From: a virus
Strand: one strand, 5' to 3'
Length of the DNA: 23,727 bases
Virus record (IMG/VR): IMGVR_UViG_3300026142_000022
Location: 1-23,727 of that record
Of this stretch, positions 2,144-11,910 are shown one piece after another. The first letter of the stretch is position 1. Each line of letters starts with the position of its first letter. Below the pieces are notes generated by a model. It searched no databases and had not been told where the DNA came from. It was given only the letters and a program-made list of their open reading frames with translations. The position numbers and the translations under genes were made by a program.

Positions 2144-2599
2144 TTAGACCCTCCGCTGACCCGCCAGGCGCAGCAACTCCATTAGCTGATTTGGCTGGCT
2201 GCCACCGCCACCAGGCATGCCACCGCCGCCGCCGAACCCGCCAAATGGCGTTGCCATCTGTGGCTGCATCGGCTGCGGCATCGGCTGTGGCCCCTGCTTG
2301 GCTTTCATCAGGTCCATCATGGTCATGAACTGCTTCATCTTGTCGTCGCCGCCGCCCCCAGGGCCAAGCAAGCTTGGCCCGACGCCGCCGCCAAACAGAC
2401 CAGCGAGCCCGCCACCCATCGGCAGGTTCGGTGTCGTCACCTGCGGCGCCGGCGGCGGCGATCCGGCAGGCATCGAGTTCGTATCGGGCGCGGCGAGCAA
2501 CGCATCGCTCTGCGGGGTGTACTGATTTCGCCCGAACAGACGAGACACGATAGAGTCATGCGCGAGACCACCGAGGCCCATGTTGAAAGGGAAATCCAT
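2144..2599 (-). CDS. Gly/Pro/Met-rich small virion protein, probable ejection-complex component
   Basis: This 151-residue protein begins MDFPFNMGLGGLAHD. The ATG at 2599 has GGAGGT four bases upstream. A longer frame back to 2698 would read into the inserted IS and is not native. The protein is low-complexity: Gly runs around residues 65-80 and 118-132, a short helical Met/Lys stretch (KMKQFMTMMDLMKAK), then a QPMPQPMQPQM-type repeat. No enzymatic motif is visible. Its TAA abuts the ATG of the transglycosylase gene, so the two are almost certainly co-translated. Small Gly/Met-rich proteins encoded beside a transglycosylase are common among podovirus internal proteins, but I do not recognise a named family. 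The IS lies between this gene and its natural upstream neighbour and could disturb its transcription. Confidence 0.75.
   Translation of the reverse strand: MDFPFNMGLGGLAHDSIVSRLFGRNQYTPQSDALLAAPDTNSMPAGSPPPAPQVTTPNLPMGGGLAGLFGGGVGPSLLGPGGGGDDKMKQFMTMMDLMKAKQGPQPMPQPMQPQMATPFGGFGGGGGMPGGGGSQPNQLMELLRLAGQRRV
2358..2383. repeat. Coding copy of a 26-bp palindrome also found in the capsid terminator
   Basis: CCAGGGCCAAGC, then A, then AGCTTGGCCCGAC. The copy at 16106-16131 differs at one base (G for A at the centre). Here it encodes part of a Gly/Pro segment in the gene at 2144-2599; there it forms the tip of the terminator. Confidence 0.8.
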
Positions 2600-2618
2600 T
2601 ACGACCTCCGGCCGGGGA

Positions 2619-2638
2619 CTGCCTGCTTTAGCTGGCAG
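2619..2638 (+). repeat. Left-end hairpin of the IS
   Basis: A 5-bp stem CTGCC/GGCAG closes over a T-T mismatch, two G-C/C-G pairs and a TTTA loop. It matches the right-end hairpin except for one base in each arm, and those two changes keep the pairing. In IS200/IS605 elements such subterminal hairpins are the TnpA recognition sites. Confidence 0.75.
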
Positions 2639-2685
2639 CGGAATGCCGGTTGGCCAGAAGGCCGAATCCAGCGTGTATTGAAAAT

Positions 2686-2720
2686 TCCGACACGACATGA
2701 AATATTCGGTGCGTGTCGGA
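2686..2720 (+). promoter_or_regulatory. Hairpin over the tnpB start codon
   Basis: A perfect 9-bp inverted repeat (TCCGACACG at 2686-2694, CGTGTCGGA at 2712-2720) with a 17-base loop covers the GTG start of tnpB at 2713-2715. No good ribosome-binding site precedes that GTG. If the hairpin forms in mRNA it would hide the start and keep translation low. It could instead be a recognition structure for transposition. Confidence 0.5.
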
Positions 2721-3936
2721 GATCGTTCGCACCGTCAAACTCAAGATCGCCTTGCCGTTCGACGTAGCGAGGCAGACGGTTGTTGTCTGGACGAAAGCCT
2801 GCAACGCCGTTAGCCGCATTGCGTTCGATGCTGGCGGCCTCTCCAATGCGGTGCGCCTTCATGCTTTGGCGTATCGGGCGGCTAGGGAGGGTGGGCTGTC
2901 GGCACAGGTCGCCCAATCCTGTATCCGGCACGTCGCATCGAAATACGCAGCGCTGCGCTCGAACGGTGTCGTGCCGACGCGACCGTGTCAGTTCAGGGAG
3001 CAGGCGGTTGTCCTGCAAGGCGGCAAGCGTGGTCGCGATGTCTCGTTGCGCTCGTCCGGCTTGTCGCTGTGGACCGTCTCCGGGCGATGCAAGGCGGTTC
3101 CGTTCTCCGGCCCACCCAATTTGCAGGACAAGCTTGCTAATTGGGCCTTCGGCGACGGCCGCCTCTCGATCCACCGTGGCCAGGTCTTTCTGGCGCTCTC
3201 GTTCAAGAAGGAGGTTAGCGAACAAACCGCTCCGAACGATGCCGTCATCGGTGTCGATCGGGGCATCAATGTGCTGGCCGCTGCGACGGATGGCCAACGG
3301 CATTACCGGCGCCGTGGCGGGTACACGAAGCATGTGCGTAACCGCTATCTGCGTGTGCGCGCGTCTCTCCAACGGAGGAAGGCAGAGCGACCGACGCATT
3401 CTGTGCGCCGAACGCTGAAACGGCTGTCCGGCCGGGAGAAGCGCTTCATGCAGGCCGTCAATCACGAGATAAGCCGCGATATCGTTCACTTCGCCGACAA
3501 ATCCGGATGCCCGGTCATTGCCGTCGAACAACTCGACGGTATCCGTAACCGCCGCCTGCGAAAGGCGCAGCGTGCCGAGATCAACCGATGGGCCTACGGC
3601 CAGTTGATGTTCTTCCTCCAATACAAGGCGGAAGAGCGGGGGATGTCGGTGATCGAGGTCGATCCGCGCAATACTAGCAAAGGCTGCTCGCGCTGCGGCC
3701 ACGTCACGGCAGCCAACAGGAATCGCAACCTGTTCCGCTGCAAGGCGTGCGGTTTCACGCATCATGCCGATTCCAATGCCGCGTTGAATATTCGACTTCG
3801 CGGAATCCTGCTTCGGCAACAGTCTGAGCAGGATGGGCTGGCGTCATGCAGCCCTGAAGCTCGGTCCGATGAACCAGGCTCAAACCCTGGGGAGGACGCG
3901 GGTAACAAGCTGTCTGCTTTAGCTGACAGTTCATGA
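2713..3936 (+). CDS. tnpB: TnpB RNA-guided nuclease of an IS200/IS605-type element
   Basis: This 407-residue protein has normal TnpB length and every key residue. The RuvC triad is D182 (IGVDRGIN), E272 (IAVEQLDG) and D353 (HHADSNAALNI). A zinc ribbon lies between the second and third: C325/C328 and C343/C346. The N-terminal about 170 residues match the usual OrfB helical and beta-barrel part. TnpB proteins bind an omegaRNA made from the element's own 3' end and cut DNA that matches the guide beside a short TAM; this maintains the element at its donor site. The GTG at 2713 is the first start after an in-frame TGA. Residues after about 365 are encoded by the likely omegaRNA and right-end hairpin, so that tail is probably unstructured. 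The gene is antisense to the phage late operon. Nothing suggests inactivation. Confidence 0.92.
   Translation: MSEIVRTVKLKIALPFDVARQTVVVWTKACNAVSRIAFDAGGLSNAVRLHALAYRAAREGGLSAQVAQSCIRHVASKYAALRSNGVVPTRPCQFREQAVVLQGGKRGRDVSLRSSGLSLWTVSGRCKAVPFSGPPNLQDKLANWAFGDGRLSIHRGQVFLALSFKKEVSEQTAPNDAVIGVDRGINVLAAATDGQRHYRRRGGYTKHVRNRYLRVRASLQRRKAERPTHSVRRTLKRLSGREKRFMQAVNHEISRDIVHFADKSGCPVIAVEQLDGIRNRRLRKAQRAEINRWAYGQLMFFLQYKAEERGMSVIEVDPRNTSKGCSRCGHVTAANRNRNLFRCKACGFTHHADSNAALNIRLRGILLRQQSEQDGLASCSPEARSDEPGSNPGEDAGNKLSALADSS
3800..3936 (+). ncRNA. Predicted omegaRNA scaffold for TnpB
   Basis: In this family the guide RNA comes from the 3' end of tnpB through the right end, and the guide itself is the flanking DNA just past the element. 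Here the segment contains a CCAGG/CCTGG stem with a 7-base loop (3874-3890) followed by the right-end hairpin (3910-3929). The guide would then start about 3934-3938 and read into the end of the neighbouring phage gene (TATTTGCTATCC and onward). The 5' boundary is a guess; the call rests on position and hairpins. Confidence 0.4.
3910..3929 (+). repeat. Right-end hairpin of the IS
   Basis: The stem CTGTC/GACAG carries the same T-T mismatch and TTTA loop as the left-end hairpin. Relative to the left end, a C-G pair is replaced by T-A, a compensatory change that supports a selected structure. It lies inside the last codons of the tnpB frame. Confidence 0.75.
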
Positions 3937-5610
3937 CTATTTGCTATCCTGAAATTGACTGACAGCAGAAAGCAGGGCATGCATGTCAATAACCTTGTGT
4001 CCGCCAATCTCGTGAACCGTGCCAGGATATTTCTTCTCGACATCCTGCGCCATCGGACCCATAACTTTTGGGTTGCTCTTCGGATCGCTCTTATAGCGAT
4101 ACGCATACATCGGCAACCCAGACTGCGGGTCTTCTCCGAGCTTCTTAATATCCGTCTTGTCGCGCCGGTCTGATGGCATAAACAGGCTTGCAATCGATGC
4201 GAGCCCAGCCAGCGTCCCGATCGGGTTGCTCTCCTTTGGCTGCGTCGTCGTCGATGTCGTGCCGATATTGCCTGGCGTCGATTGCTGCAGCAGTCGCAAC
4301 ATATCGATCGGCTGACTGAGATTGCTTTGATCGTTTGCTTGCTGCGTCGCCCCGGTGCCGAGTAGCTGCTGCAGCGCCGTTGCCTGACGCCGGGCCTCAT
4401 CATTGGCAAAGGTGTTTTGCAGCCCGGACGCTGTCAGCGCGCGATTGGCATCATTTTCCGACAGCCCCATCGCGCGACCGATCGCGGCCTGCTCCTGGGT
4501 CGCGTTGAACTGGTTGGCTTGGTTCGCCAGACCCGCGAAATACTGCAGCGCACTATTCCCCTGGCCGGCATTGAATTGTTGCGCGCCCTGTCGCTCCTGT
4601 GTGTTGAATTTAGCAATATCGGCGAGCTGGCTCGCGTTGAATTGCCCCATATTGTTTACAGCGGCAGCATTTCCGGCGTTTGCCGATTGCTGACGCTGCG
4701 CATTGGCTTCTAATGCCGCATTATAGGCAGCCTTGTTTAGCCGCTCAGCCTCGTCCTGTAAATTAGCGTTAAATTCGCCGCGCTGATTGATCTGCCCGGT
4801 ATTGAACTGCCCCATTTGGTTCGTCTGACCGGCGTTAAACTCACCGACCTGTTGCGCATTGTTCGCGTTCGCCAGGGCTGTGGCTGTGGCTCTGTCATAG
4901 CCTTGCGCCATCAGCTGCCCGGTTGTCAGCGCAACCTGATCGCCAAACGCGCGGTTGGCTTCGGCCGATTGCAACGCCCCGCGGGAACCCCCAAAGCTCG
5001 CGGCTGACGCATTGCGCGCCCCGATCGCAGCCTGGGTCTGTCCCAGCTCGCGGCGCATCCGGTCAATTGTTGGGTCGAGGACGTCCTTTGTATAGGGGTT
5101 GAGCAGCGCGTGGATCGCGTCGCCACCCACCTGCCCGGACCTCGGGTCGGTCGTCGCGGTCCCGCTGGTTGTGGCATAGCCCGCACTCGCTGGCGACATA
5201 TTTGCCGGCACCCCCGACGATGCCGCATTGTACTGTTGGGCAGCCACCGCCTGTGGCGTCGCCGCCTGCTCCCATGTCGTTTCATAGAGCGGGTGGCTCT
5301 CCTGAGCCGGGATCGGGGTGTAGCCTGTGTGCGGGCCGTTTTGGCCATTAAAGATGTAATTCTGCGCCACGTTGGTTTGCGGCGCGGTTGCGCCTGGCGT
5401 TCCAAACATGTTCTGCGCCATCTGGCGAGCGAGATCAAACCCGGCCGTCTGGTCGGGGGTGAACCCGGCAACCGTTGTAGCCGGCGGGTTTTGCAGAAAC
5501 GGATCGGTGAATCGCTGCGCAGTCGCCAGCGTGTTCTTCTGGGCGTCCTGGATGTAGGCCGGAATTTCTGTCTTTTGAGTCGAGGTCTGCGACCCACCTC
5601 CGCTGGACAT
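3937..5610 (-). CDS. Large ejection-type virion protein with 11-residue repeats and C-terminal S74-like domain
   Basis: The 557-residue product starts at the ATG at 5610, which has AAGGA nine bases upstream and follows the previous stop by one base; a TTG at 5619 is less likely. It is Ala/Gln/Asn-rich, as ejection or internal core proteins usually are. Residues about 247-378 (bases 4477-4872) form an exact 11-residue repeat anchored by FN (consensus FNAxQxxxxxQ). The last 78 residues begin SDRRDKTDIKKLG and include MGPMAQDVEKKYPG and a GGHKVID turn. This is the pattern of the S74 intramolecular chaperone family, in which the Ser of the SD pair and a nearby Lys carry out self-cleavage. Release of the C-terminus at about residue 480 is therefore possible. 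It lies between the GNAT-like gene and two further ejection genes; the IS starts directly after its stop. Confidence 0.8.
   Translation of the reverse strand: MSSGGGSQTSTQKTEIPAYIQDAQKNTLATAQRFTDPFLQNPPATTVAGFTPDQTAGFDLARQMAQNMFGTPGATAPQTNVAQNYIFNGQNGPHTGYTPIPAQESHPLYETTWEQAATPQAVAAQQYNAASSGVPANMSPASAGYATTSGTATTDPRSGQVGGDAIHALLNPYTKDVLDPTIDRMRRELGQTQAAIGARNASAASFGGSRGALQSAEANRAFGDQVALTTGQLMAQGYDRATATALANANNAQQVGEFNAGQTNQMGQFNTGQINQRGEFNANLQDEAERLNKAAYNAALEANAQRQQSANAGNAAAVNNMGQFNASQLADIAKFNTQERQGAQQFNAGQGNSALQYFAGLANQANQFNATQEQAAIGRAMGLSENDANRALTASGLQNTFANDEARRQATALQQLLGTGATQQANDQSNLSQPIDMLRLLQQSTPGNIGTTSTTTQPKESNPIGTLAGLASIASLFMPSDRRDKTDIKKLGEDPQSGLPMYAYRYKSDPKSNPKVMGPMAQDVEKKYPGTVHEIGGHKVIDMHALLSAVSQFQDSK
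4477..4872 (-). repeat. Eleven tandem 11-residue (hendecad) repeats in the ejection protein
   Basis: Anchor residues spaced exactly 11 apart read AN, FN, FN, FN, LN, AN, GN, FN, FN, FN, YF, FN: twelve anchors, eleven intervals, with no gap or insertion. Other positions favour A at +2 and Q at +4 and +10. Eleven-residue periodicity is typical of extended alpha-helices or right-handed coiled coils. Confidence 0.8.
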
Positions 5611-5611
5611 T

Positions 5612-5992
5612 TCAATCAATCCTTCGCGACATGAGGGTGTGCGTCTCTTTGTACCCCGGGAAGACGCGAAGCCACCCTCTGCGTCCGCCCAAGATCACCA
5701 GATCACATCCCTGTTTTTTCGCCCAGTCCCGAATCACCGCCTCGGTGGCAACGATTTCCTTTAAGTCTCCGGCAGCGAGCCAGCCCCTGAGCACCTTGGC
5801 GCGCGGGTACTGTTCGACGTTTGTAATCATGACCGAGTTCGCGGTCGACCAGAGCTGCGCGTTGCCGCTCTCGATTTCTTTCCAGACATCGTCGATATCG
5901 TGGGTGCCGATACCGCGGTCGAGAACCTCTTGAACCAGGTCTCGGTTGCGCTCGAATTGCTGCCACAGCCAGCCGATACTGCTTGTATCCAT
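5612..5992 (-). CDS. Small GNAT-like phage protein
   Basis: This 126-residue protein resembles the short GNAT-fold proteins often encoded in podovirus structural blocks. Visible pieces are a central GNAQLW strand, VTNVEQYPRAKVL, an acetyl-CoA-site-like helix (GDLKEIVATEAVIRDWAKKQGC, read in two parts about residues 74-95) and the terminal GGRRGWLRVFPGY followed by ETHTLMSRRI. GNAT enzymes move an acetyl group from acetyl-CoA to an amine. Whether this one is catalytic or a structural relic is not known. The ATG at 5992 has only a weak upstream purine tract. Its TGA is one base from the ATG of the ejection gene, so the two are coupled. The fold call is from motif memory, not a search. Confidence 0.7.
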   Translation of the reverse strand: MDTSSIGWLWQQFERNRDLVQEVLDRGIGTHDIDDVWKEIESGNAQLWSTANSVMITNVEQYPRAKVLRGWLAAGDLKEIVATEAVIRDWAKKQGCDLVILGGRRGWLRVFPGYKETHTLMSRRID

Positions 5993-8260: not shown

Positions 8261-8605
8261 CTAGCGCCGCCCCGCGGCGATGTCTTCCGCTGCCCACTTG
8301 TCAAAGAAAAGCGGCAACGCCTCCAAAATAGTCCCGACAGTGATTTCAGAACCAGTGTGCAGCGTTACGATCTCGTTGGGGATGTTTGTCGCGATGCGCA
8401 CGCAAACTGCCGGAACATTCGCTTTTGAGAGAGCGGTGCCTCGCGAGTCGCGCAGCACTGTTTCGCGATAGATCGCGATATTGTATGGCCCGGTGAGCGG
8501 CGCCTCGATGACTGCTCGATATGTCCGCTCTTCAAGGAGCGTCGCGGTTACGGTTTCCGTGGTTTGCACCACGACGGGTTTGCTGACGGTTTCTTGCGTT
8601 GCCAT
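8261..8605 (-). CDS. Conserved-position hypothetical protein between fiber and nozzle
   Basis: This 114-residue protein has no recognised family. The first about 40 residues are Thr/Val/Glu-rich with strand-like TETVTATLLEERTYRAVIEAP. The middle has alternating hydrophobics (YNIAIYRETVL, VCVRIATNIP) and the C-terminus is a short helix (LPLFFDKWAAEDIAAG). The start overlaps the fiber stop in a TGATG, with GAGG seven bases upstream, and its TAG abuts the nozzle ATG. This gives tight translational coupling on both sides. The position suggests a small virion or fiber-assembly protein, but that is only inference. Confidence 0.7.
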   Translation of the reverse strand: MATQETVSKPVVVQTTETVTATLLEERTYRAVIEAPLTGPYNIAIYRETVLRDSRGTALSKANVPAVCVRIATNIPNEIVTLHTGSEITVGTILEALPLFFDKWAAEDIAAGRR

Positions 8606-10470
8606 CAGACGGCCTCTAACGCAGCCACACGCGCCCGCAATAGCTTTAGCTCAGCCACCAGATTCGCCATGATCTCCGGCGAGCTGGCCTGCATGCCCTG
8701 GTAGATCGGCAGGCCATCTGCATCAACCGCATCCTTTTCGCCAGTCACCGACGAGGGCGTGACTTCCGCTGCCTCGTGCGCGACAAACCCGACACCGCGT
8801 ACCCCGTCTTCTTCCCAAACCCATTCGCGTGGACGCAATGCGTCGATAAACTCCCCGCTACCGACGAGATCGATAATCTCGTTTTTGAGCCGGTAATCGG
8901 ACGACGTGTTATAGGCGGTAACGGAGGCGGTCTGCGTGATTGACCCGACCGACGTGCCGGCAGCATTGACAAAATAGACCGCAACCGTCGTATCGGTCTG
9001 CGGCCGTAGCGCAATGCCGTATTGCGTCCCGCCCCCAGCGTATCCAATCGAAACACCAGCGACAGCGGGCGGAAAGCTATATGCGCTTGACCCAAACCGC
9101 CATGTCGTAACGCCGAGCGCTGTCGTGTTCCGCCCGGTTTCGGCGTGACCGCCAGAGGCGAAAATGAGCTGCCCGGTGGGGCTGTCTGCCATCAAAACAA
9201 GCGGGGCGGCGTTGAGGTAGAGATACCCGGAGCCGGCGGTTAGCGCGCCGTATGTGGTCTCAGCCGTCCCGCGAAATCCAAACCGGGCGCCGTTCGTTCC
9301 GTTCGATGCCAGGAAATAGGCTTCCGCCTCAACGCCAGTAGAAGCATTGATAACCGAGCTGGTCAGCGCAGTATCCACCGAAAGCTCGGCGGCGGTGTTG
9401 CCAAATACCGTCAGCCCGGCACTTGAAATGTCAAGCACTTGCGTGCCAGCGGTGGCAATACCCAGACCGTCTGGACCAACCCAATAGAGCCCGGTGTTGC
9501 TATCGCCTGAAATACTCAATGCTGGGGCGGCGACACTGCCGGCATTGAGTACGGCCGTGGCCGCCCGCATCTGTGCGGGGACCGTGATCCCGGTAGCGTC
9601 GATCTGGAGCTTATTGACACCGCCAACCGCCACACCGAGCGAATCAGCGCCAACCCGGTAGATCCCGGTGTTCAAATCCGCGCCAAAGCGGATGGCAGGG
9701 ACCGTAACGCCGCCATCGTTGATAACGGCGCCGCCCGATATCGTCGCCGCTCCGGGGATAATAATCCCAGCTGTGTTCACTTCAAACGCCCGGCTACCAC
9801 CCGCCGCAATCCCGAGCGCGTCGGCACCGACACGATAGAGCCCAGTATTCGGATCGTTGGCGAAACGGAACGCGGGGACTGCGACGCTGCCGTCGTTAAT
9901 GATAACGCCAAAAGATACGCTCGCCGAGCCGGTGATTATGGCTCCCGATACGTTGGCTTCAAATACTTTGCTGCCGTTGGACGAGATTCCGAAGGCGCCA
10001 TCACCTATCCGGTAGAACCCGGTATCGGGGTCGCTCTGAAAATATACCGCCGGCGTTACCTGTGTACCGTTACCCAGCGGCCACAAATTTGTCGCCAGCA
10101 CAACATCCACGCCGTCGCAATACAGCGGGGTTACTGCCGCAGGCGCTACCGACGCGCCTGCCGCCAAGGCGGTCTTGACCACCACCGAGCTGGTGCAGGT
10201 ATTGTGGACGAGATAGGTTTTCGAGACGCTGGGGATCTGGACGGTGCCACCGCCGCCGGTGAATTTCAGCACCCTGGGACGAGTTTCGTCGGCCACGTAA
10301 TTGGCCGAGGACGGAACCGTATTCCCGTCAACAACCAGCACGGACACGCCGTCGAGCGCGGCATCGATCATTTCGATCGTCTGGTCGTTTAGGATGATCC
10401 CCCAAACGCCAACATTGTCGCCAGTCCCCTGTTTGTTGAAGCGGTTGCTGGCGGTCGGGGTTGATGCCAT
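8605..10470 (-). CDS. Tail fiber with tandem repeats and C-terminal S74 intramolecular chaperone
   Basis: The product has 621 residues. The N-terminus (about 10-42) contains GDNVGVWGIILNDQTIEMIDAALDG in two adjoining blocks, a common virion-anchoring motif. Residues about 139-358 hold four repeats of 58-59 residues, each with D-x-(N/D)-T-G-x-Y-(R/W)-(V/I)-G (anchors at D147, D206, D265, D323); this is expected to make a trimeric beta-structured shaft. Residues 523-621 are a Peptidase_S74 domain: SSDYRLKNEI, then VRGVGFVAHEAAEVTP, ending in a coiled coil (ELKLLRARVAALE). In S74 proteins the domain assists trimer folding and then cuts itself off at the SD site. Receptor binding at the tail is the usual role. 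The start has only a weak ribosome site. It is transcribed away from the plus-strand gene at 10522. Confidence 0.9.
   Translation of the reverse strand: MASTPTASNRFNKQGTGDNVGVWGIILNDQTIEMIDAALDGVSVLVVDGNTVPSSANYVADETRPRVLKFTGGGGTVQIPSVSKTYLVHNTCTSSVVVKTALAAGASVAPAAVTPLYCDGVDVVLATNLWPLGNGTQVTPAVYFQSDPDTGFYRIGDGAFGISSNGSKVFEANVSGAIITGSASVSFGVIINDGSVAVPAFRFANDPNTGLYRVGADALGIAAGGSRAFEVNTAGIIIPGAATISGGAVINDGGVTVPAIRFGADLNTGIYRVGADSLGVAVGGVNKLQIDATGITVPAQMRAATAVLNAGSVAAPALSISGDSNTGLYWVGPDGLGIATAGTQVLDISSAGLTVFGNTAAELSVDTALTSSVINASTGVEAEAYFLASNGTNGARFGFRGTAETTYGALTAGSGYLYLNAAPLVLMADSPTGQLIFASGGHAETGRNTTALGVTTWRFGSSAYSFPPAVAGVSIGYAGGGTQYGIALRPQTDTTVAVYFVNAAGTSVGSITQTASVTAYNTSSDYRLKNEIIDLVGSGEFIDALRPREWVWEEDGVRGVGFVAHEAAEVTPSSVTGEKDAVDADGLPIYQGMQASSPEIMANLVAELKLLRARVAALEAV
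9397..10056 (-). repeat. Four 58-59 residue repeats in the tail-fiber shaft
   Basis: The repeated unit carries DPxTG(F/L/I)YR(I/V)G, then LGIA-GGS-type and INDGSVAVPA-type blocks. Spacing between the D anchors is 59, 59 and 58 residues. The copies have diverged at DNA level, so the repeat is old compared with the 60-bp repeats at 11581-11790. Confidence 0.75.
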
Positions 10471-10983: not shown

Positions 10984-11910
10984 TTAGCTTTTATCAATAT
11001 CGCCCTGGATGCGCGCGAGGACATCGTTGAATTGCGCCTGCATCTGCCGTGCCCAGAGCGGCGCGTCGCTCGATATGATAATCTGATAGCGGTTCGCGCC
11101 GCTTTTGCGAATCACCGGCGCACGCGCAAACAGAGAATGCGCAGCAAATCCCCAGGCCGCCCGCGTCATCGCCAAAATGGTTGGTCCCGCGCCAATCAGA
11201 GCGCGGGCGACAAACCCAAGCGCAGCCGGGAATGTACCGAGAACCGAGCGAATTCGCGTTGCGACCGGAGTAAATTGGAAGGCCGCCGGGGTTGCGCGGG
11301 AAACGGTCGCGGGTGTCGCCCGACGGGCGGTAAACCCAAGCGCGGTAACCACCATACTAAGCAGCGCGCCGTTGGTAGCAAGCAGTGAGGCGGCGGTCCA
11401 CCCCAGCACGGCAACAGCCACGGCGAGAGCCGTCGGACTAAAAACACCGACAGCCAGCGCTGACCAGGCCAGAGAGGCCACGGCTACACCAAGCGTCGCC
11501 GCGCTAGAAACCCCCGCGGCTCGCGCCGTATAGGACAGGCTGGCAACAGCACTCGCCGACAAGGTCGCGGCAGCACTCGCCGCTCGTGCCTGCCAGGCCA
11601 GCGCGCCAACGGCCTCGCGCAGAACGGCGGCAGCCATCGGTGCCCGAACCTGCCAGGCCAGCGCGCCAGCGGCTTCTCGCAGGACGAATACGGCCATCGC
11701 CGCCCGTGCCTGCCAGGCCAGCGCGCCAGCGGCCTCCCGCAGGACAGCCTTCGAATTTTGTGTCCGAGCTTGCCAGGCCAGCGCTGCTTTCGCGACCGCC
11801 AGCAAGGTTGGGGTAAACGCAGTTTCCTGGTAGGCGCCGCCGCCCATCCAGACCGTGCGCGAGCCGGTTTCTTCGTAGGCGCCATCTTCTAGCCAAACCG
11901 TGCGACTCAT
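10984..11910 (-). CDS. Structural-block protein built of eleven 20-22 residue repeats
   Basis: This 308-residue protein of unknown function is very Ala-rich. Residues 2-31 are a 15-residue tandem duplication (SRTVWLEDGAYEETG then SRTVWMGGGAYQETA). From about 36 to 260 one unit recurs eleven times, anchored by an aromatic residue at 46, 66, 86, 106, 127, 149, 171, 193, 213, 233 and 255, with consensus A-x-L-x-(W/F/Y)-x-A-R. The first four copies are exactly 20 residues and nearly identical, containing ALAWQARA and VLREAAG. Residues about 267-308 are a different, charged C-terminal segment (RYQIIISSDAPLWARQMQAQ). Alternating hydrophobic and Ala positions could be stacked helices or short beta-hairpins; a membrane role is not excluded. 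It lies between spike and fiber genes, so a tail-associated location is likely. The ribosome site is weak. Confidence 0.8.
   Translation of the reverse strand: MSRTVWLEDGAYEETGSRTVWMGGGAYQETAFTPTLLAVAKAALAWQARTQNSKAVLREAAGALAWQARAAMAVFVLREAAGALAWQVRAPMAAAVLREAVGALAWQARAASAAATLSASAVASLSYTARAAGVSSAATLGVAVASLAWSALAVGVFSPTALAVAVAVLGWTAASLLATNGALLSMVVTALGFTARRATPATVSRATPAAFQFTPVATRIRSVLGTFPAALGFVARALIGAGPTILAMTRAAWGFAAHSLFARAPVIRKSGANRYQIIISSDAPLWARQMQAQFNDVLARIQGDIDKS
11581..11790 (-). repeat. Four near-identical 60-bp coding repeats
   Basis: The string TGCCAGGCCAGCGC occurs at 11591, 11651, 11711 and 11771, exactly 60 bases apart, each with similar flanks (GCCCGNRCC before and GCAGGAC-like after). 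The unit is in frame (20 codons), pointing to recent tandem duplication by slippage or recombination. Confidence 0.9.

What the first reader, a model, noticed from the sequence alone, without database searches (positions are those of the whole stretch)
2610..3960. Intact TnpB nuclease lodged in a phage late operon, with a guide predicted from a phage gene
Seen: a full-length tnpB with D182, E272, D353 and both zinc CxxC pairs, end hairpins and no tnpA, between two ejection genes. Known: TnpB takes its guide from the DNA just past the right end. Inference: the guide would be the last codons of the ejection gene ending at 3937, so the nuclease would cut related phages or sister genomes that lack the insertion at that site. 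That would favour spread of the element (homing) or exclude close competitors.
Basis: partly seen in the sequence, partly recalled or inferred. Interest (0 to 1): 0.75.

Follow-up and report, generated by a model that had tools for sequence, protein, structure and literature searches.

The report
Phage TnpB element at gene junction
A phage carries a small mobile element encoding an RNA-guided DNA cutter; its predicted guide matches the end of a phage gene, and it sits exactly where one gene's stop codon overlaps the next gene's start codon, so it can probably copy itself into sister phage genomes without breaking either protein.

Summary
The window is a whole IMG/VR record of an SU10-like podovirus. 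It carries an intact tnpB (2713-3936, +; D182/E272/D353, two CxxC pairs) with matched end hairpins and no tnpA. I place the element at 2600-3937 (1338 bp): TAM CCAT (2596-2599), guide from 3938. The right end is fixed by an omegaRNA pseudoknot (3843-3848 with 3932-3937) that covaries in 18 relatives. The boundary rule is confirmed by a filled/empty pair of near-identical viral contigs for a relative element (L095/L236). Homing is the best mechanism but untested; no close empty-site relative of this phage is held. New: the TAM is the start codon of the next gene, and the inferred empty site is a TAA/ATG overlap (TAATG). Insertion turns TAA into TAG and supplies a Shine-Dalgarno (GGAGGT). Relatives repeat this in viral contigs: in 12 of 35 right ends a >=100-codon frame runs into the junction in the overlap frame (overlap background 3.4%, p~1e-9), and all 12 regain a stop within one codon; 15 bacterial copies show no such bias. 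New variant of a known kind.

The parts
2596..2599 (+). TAM / left cleavage site CCAT; on the minus strand ATGG, the start codon of gene 2144-2599
   Evidence: only flank shared between copies of relative elements at different sites; empty/filled pair L236/L095 has TCAT at the same place
2600..3937 (+). whole tnpB-only IS200/IS605-type element, 1338 bp
   Evidence: boundaries from family comparison and pseudoknot
2604..2609 (-). Shine-Dalgarno GGAGGT inside the left end, 4 nt before the ATG (2599-2597) of the downstream gene
   Evidence: sequence; same ACCTCC position in L096 and L191 and L139
2619..2638 (+). left-end hairpin
2678..2706 (+). sigma70-like promoter TTGAAA-17-AATATT before tnpB
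   Evidence: consensus match only; a similar TTGACA-17-TATATT lies before tnpB in L107 (sequence)
2713..3936 (+). tnpB, 407 aa, intact RuvC D182/E272/D353 and zinc ribbon
3835..3937 (+). omegaRNA 3' core: stem-loop 1 (3835-3840/3849-3854), pseudoknot arms 3843-3848 and 3932-3937, right-end hairpin
   Evidence: covariation over 18 sequences
3910..3929 (+). right-end hairpin
3938..3957 (+). predicted guide / target TATTTGCTATCCTGAAATTG; complement of the last codons of the ejection gene
3937..5619 (-). gene upstream of the junction: DNA ejection protein homologue with C-terminal Peptidase_S74; stop now TAG, inferred TAA before insertion
2144..2599 (-). gene downstream of the junction, 151 aa, no family match; its start codon is the TAM

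Best explanation
This is a tnpB-only (IS1341-like) member of the IS200/IS605 transposons, inserted at a late-gene junction of an SU10-like podovirus. Shown: intact TnpB, paired end hairpins, omegaRNA core with a covarying pseudoknot ending at 3937, TAM CCAT at 2596-2599, no tnpA. Inferred: tnpB mRNA from a promoter near 2680 is processed into an omegaRNA whose last 16-20 nt (3938-3957) guide TnpB to TCCAT-TATTTGCTATCCTGAA, a site present only in genomes without the element. Cutting such genomes during co-infection, or after the element has been peeled out, and repair from the filled copy would keep and spread the element (homing / gene drive). Movement to new sites would need a Y1 TnpA in trans. 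By anatomy the insertion is neutral for translation: it splits an inferred TAA/ATG overlap, restores the upstream stop (TAA to TAG) and gives the downstream gene a new GGAGGT.
For: Catalytic and zinc residues intact; AlphaFold model pLDDT 81 aligns to Cas12f1 at Z 23 (rmsd 6.9, 336 aligned) and to a TnpB ternary complex at Z 19 (rmsd 6.2, 330 aligned). Pseudoknot helix fully paired in 18 sequences with both-side changes at 3 of 6 pairs; whole structure 93% paired against 21-51% in slid controls. Boundary rule proved on L095/L236: filled and empty contigs with 29 differences in 5,000 and 0 in 122 flanking bases, no target duplication, element starting after TCAT and ending TTAC. RE end TNAC constant while flanks vary; LE preceded by CCAT/TCAT/CTAT at different sites. 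Own genome has no target next to a TAM. tnpA+tnpB loci with the same RE hairpin exist in bacteria (G010:C321, G007:C91). TnpB as retention/homing nuclease and as plasmid gene drive is published (PMC8612924; PMC11870625).
Against: No empty site of this phage itself was found; the only other record is a 100% identical filled contig, probably the same population. TAM use, expression, RNA processing and cleavage are predictions. tnpB lies antisense to late transcription, so its omegaRNA timing is unknown. Pseudoknot rows were chosen because a pairing hexamer was found, so 100% is partly by construction; most RE ends of the TTAC/TGAC class had one, those of the TCAC class almost never in this form.
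Confidence: 0.7

Rival explanations
1. A recent passenger insertion with an intact but unexpressed or inactive TnpB; it persists only because the junction tolerates it, with no homing.
For: No tnpA in the record; one insertion in one phage population; relatives at the junction lack it; tnpB is antisense to the late genes.
Against: Open frame, all catalytic residues, promoter-like site, complete omegaRNA core and both ends conserved.
Confidence: 0.2
2. The nuclease is used by the phage to exclude close competitors (superinfection defence) rather than for spread of the element.
For: Any co-infecting genome with the empty site would be cut by the same reaction; PADLOC Cas12f/Cas12u models match, as expected for any TnpB.
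Against: Target is not conserved even in the nearest other relatives, so only near-identical genomes would be hit; cutting a sister that can be repaired favours conversion.
Confidence: 0.07
3. Domesticated RNA-guided regulator (TldR-like) acting on the junction that holds the ribosome-binding site of the downstream gene.
For: Guides of this family often cover ribosome-binding regions (20 of 53 with an SD complement in the first 14 nt against about 5 further out).
Against: RuvC triad intact, whereas TldRs have lost nuclease activity (PMC13418256); the target next to a TAM is absent from the own genome.
Confidence: 0.03

Closest known systems
ISDra2 TnpB / reRNA (IS200/IS605)
   Same: RuvC DED and zinc ribbon, omegaRNA from the right end with a pseudoknot next to the guide, TAM left of the element, guide = right flank, homing-like retention
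   Different: 18-19% identity to TnpB ternary structures in the structural alignment, Z lower than for Cas12f1; TAM CCAT, not TTGAT; no tnpA; in a phage at a stop/start overlap
tnpB element in L107 (IMGVR_UViG_3300020171_000019)
   Same: 54% identical TnpB, same hairpin type, omegaRNA tail and promoter spacing
   Different: inserted after CTAT, not at a start codon; RE ends TTGAC
L095 element with its empty relative L236
   Same: same class of ends, YCAT TAM, stop/start overlap insertion with restored stop, CCTCC in the left end
   Different: 35% identical TnpB; the overlap is ATGA, RE ends TTAC so the stop is GTG-TAA
IS200/605 TnpB gene drive in plasmids (PMC11870625)
   Same: TnpB guided by its insertion site acts on multicopy replicons lacking the IS
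   Different: shown experimentally with plasmids; here the replicon is a phage and function is inferred
TldR phage regulators (PMC13418256)
   Same: phage-borne TnpB homologue with guide RNA
   Different: TldR is nuclease-dead and targets host flagellin; this one is intact and targets its own insertion site

Membership tests
IS200/IS605 tnpB-only (IS1341-like) element | OrfB/TnpB protein | tested here: met
   PF01385, PF07282, NF040570
IS200/IS605 tnpB-only (IS1341-like) element | subterminal hairpins, no inverted repeats, no target duplication | tested here: met
   direct-oriented hairpins; no duplication in the relative's empty/filled pair; for this element itself the empty site is inferred
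IS200/IS605 tnpB-only (IS1341-like) element | insertion 3' of a fixed short motif kept at the left end | tested here: met
   CCAT here; CCAT/TCAT/CTAT in copies at different sites
IS200/IS605 tnpB-only (IS1341-like) element | Y1 TnpA acts on these ends | tested here: inconclusive
   absent from the record; tnpA+tnpB loci with the same RE hairpin in bacteria; activity in trans not testable
Active RNA-guided TnpB nuclease | RuvC D-E-D and zinc ribbon | tested here: met
   fold
Active RNA-guided TnpB nuclease | omegaRNA with pseudoknot ending at the transposon boundary | tested here: met
   covariation; known form in PMC10711439
Active RNA-guided TnpB nuclease | TAM-dependent cleavage | not testable with these tools
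   needs an assay
TldR | loss of RuvC catalytic residues | tested here: not met
Type V-F CRISPR-Cas (Cas12f) | CRISPR array beside the effector | tested here: not met
   no array-like direct repeats in the window other than a 60-nt coding repeat at 11567-11784
IS607 TnpB element | serine recombinase TnpA | tested here: not met
   no PF00239 match in the record; a tnpB-only IS607 derivative is argued against by the hairpins and the TNAC end

The most novel reading that the evidence does not exclude
A class of phage-borne tnpB elements is built to be translation-neutral: the TAM is a start codon (YCAT = rc ATGR), the complement of the right end supplies G plus a stop in the frame of TAATG/ATGA overlaps, and in some the left end supplies a Shine-Dalgarno. 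They enter stop/start gene junctions of compact phage genomes without changing either protein and then home RNA-guided into empty sisters, doing without a self-splicing intron what intron-borne homing endonucleases do.
Probability: 0.35. Interest if true: 0.75.

Novelty: new variant of a known kind. Interest (0 to 1): 0.55.

Why it matters
TnpB is known as a transposon nuclease in chromosomes and plasmids. Here it sits in a phage late region at a site that costs neither flanking protein, and the same junction habit recurs in other viral contigs but not in the bacterial copies. That gives a testable reason why RNA-guided nucleases can live in gene-dense phage genomes, and names exact TAM, guide and empty sites for assays.

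Tried and rejected
Rfam scan of the window: nothing. Single-protein TnpB scan of IMG/VR found only the twin contig; an alignment of 8 TnpBs at 34-35% identity was too diverse to scan with. Right-flank search for an empty site of this phage: L157/L158 are AT-rich coding chance hits. Right flanks of L109 and L093: only filled copies. A left boundary after TTAC (2599-2602) was considered and dropped because L096, L139 and other relatives put CCAT at about the same distance from the hairpin. The IS608 rule pairing the left cleavage site with the tetranucleotide 5' of the hairpin (PMC5934647) gave CCAT only with a wobble, so I do not rely on it. Start-codon adjacency by ORF length alone is only moderate (23 of 42 against 27% background, p 1e-4); the frame test is stronger. 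Stop restoration in 12 of 12 is automatic for the five TA| sites (the RE always ends in C); for the other seven it needs TTAC or TCAC, which most viral REs have (28 of 38), so it is suggestive, not proof of adaptation. An SD-like 4-mer in the left end occurs in a minority of relatives (12 of 42).

Full report
What is there. The window is a complete IMG/VR record of 23,727 bases with SU10-type major capsid and portal proteins and a terminase. The portal's closest isolate relatives are Rhizobium phages at 34-36% identity. Late genes are on the minus strand. One 407-aa tnpB is on the plus strand at 2713-3936. It has D182, E272, D353 and both CxxC pairs, hits guided_TnpB, and its AlphaFold model (pLDDT 81) aligns with Cas12f1 (Z 23, rmsd 6.9, 336 residues) and a TnpB ternary complex (Z 19, rmsd 6.2, 330 residues). 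The C-terminal 34 residues have low confidence in the model; their codons overlap the omegaRNA.

Ends. Hairpins at 2619-2638 and 3910-3929 share 18 of 20 bases and differ by a compensatory pair. The pattern CTGYCTGCTTTAGCTGRCAG occurs in 66 stretches of viral contigs and 36 of bacterial and archaeal genomes, with tnpB beside many of them. Left ends typically read YCAT|...GGGGA-hairpin-NGGAA, right ends AAG-hairpin-N4-5-TNAC|. Copies of one element at different sites share only CCAT/TCAT/CTAT (or TTAY) on the left and nothing on the right.

Right boundary and guide. In the TTAC/TGAC class the last six bases of the element pair with a hexamer 40-95 nt before the right hairpin. Permuting partners gives 10 of 51 on average and at most 18 in 500 trials, against 26 observed. 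On an 18-sequence alignment the pseudoknot helix is paired in all cells with both-side changes at three pairs, stem-loop 1 in 79% and the hairpin in 99%; the covariation score is 0.36 against 0.15 in shuffles and at most 0.09 in slid versions. Rows were chosen for having a pairing hexamer, so the pseudoknot percentage is partly by construction; the permutation test is free of that choice. A pseudoknot between the bases next to the guide and the loop of stem-loop 1, and a scaffold that ends at the transposon boundary, are known for IS200/605 TnpB (PMC10711439). Hence the element ends at C3937 and the guide is TATTTGCTATCCTGAAATTG.

Empty site. For this phage none is held: the only other record is a 100% identical filled contig, the next best ejection-gene relatives align only in parts, mostly the S74 domain, and no other contig carries the target. 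For a relative element the pair exists: L095 (filled) and L236 (IMGVR_UViG_3300047576_000042, empty) differ at 29 of 5,000 bases on the left and 0 of 122 on the right. They read GCCACGTCAT|ACCAGAAG (empty) and GCCACGTCAT|element of 1238 bp|ACCAGAAG (filled), with no duplication. The same rule gives TCCAT|TATTTG here.

Junction. Read on the minus strand, the inferred empty site is CAG GAT AGC AAA TAATGG: stop TAA overlaps start ATG. Several ejection-gene relatives have the same TAATG overlap at this junction (L006-L008, L070, L075-L077), and no junction read shows an insertion. The element makes the stop TAG, leaving the protein unchanged, and places GGAGGT four bases before the ATG. In L236 the overlap is GTATGA; in L095 the upstream gene reads GTG TAA, again the same protein end.

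Family test. In 35 right ends in viral contigs, the frame that fits a stop/start overlap is open for >=100 codons in 12, against 0 and 3 in the other frames (p 3e-4). ATGR sites at a true overlap with such an open frame are 3.4% of the background (p 8e-10). In 15 bacterial and archaeal copies there is no such bias (3, 0 and 2 in the three frames). In all 12 a stop returns within 0-1 codons. Guides beginning TA are 10 of 50 (p 9e-4), and Shine-Dalgarno complements are concentrated in the first 20 nt of the guide (20 of 53 against about 5). Elements within the sample are related to one another, and for most of the 12 the left side was not seen, so the p-values are optimistic and the overlap is inferred from the right flank. 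The likely cause is survival: insertions elsewhere in a gene-dense phage are lost. Whether the ends are also shaped for it is open.

Mechanism. Shown: intact nuclease, ends, omegaRNA core, guide, absence of a self-target next to a TAM, absence of tnpA. Inferred: expression, processing, cleavage, conversion of empty sisters. The precedents are 'peel, paste and copy' (PMC8612924) and the plasmid gene drive (PMC11870625). Bacterial loci with tnpA, tnpB and the same right hairpin (G010:C321, G007:C91) show where a transposase acting in trans could come from.

Verdict. A well-delimited member of a known kind in an informative setting. Nine literature searches in an open-access library found no account of phage tnpB elements at stop/start overlaps. 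Key subscription papers could not be read, so novelty of that point is provisional.

Noticed in passing
L167 / genome G007 (Proteobacteria MAG F1-120-MAGs186): About 120 tnpB-like and 20 Y1 tnpA matches in a 6 Mb bin: extreme IS605 load, or a contaminated bin.
   Followed up: no
L099 5068-5160 and 6791-6883, L112 1307-1399: Three ORF-less mini-elements of roughly 120 nt with both hairpins in one 68.6-kb viral contig (MITE-like), each at a different site.
   Followed up: partly
L107 and L205 (one 76-kb contig): Two left ends 93% identical over 57 bp, but beside TnpBs 54% and 31% identical to the window's: ends conserved, nucleases different.
   Followed up: partly
window 3937-5619 and 8605-10470: Peptidase_S74 chaperone domain twice in one operon: in the ejection-protein homologue and in a tail-fibre-like protein.
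   Followed up: no
window 11567-11784: 60-nt tandem repeat inside the 10984-11910 reading frame (LAWQAR repeats), function unknown.
   Followed up: no
IMGVR_UViG_3300001991_000004 (L002/L082/L138): 100% identical contig that extends the phage about 5 kb past the left end of the window (coordinates).
   Followed up: no
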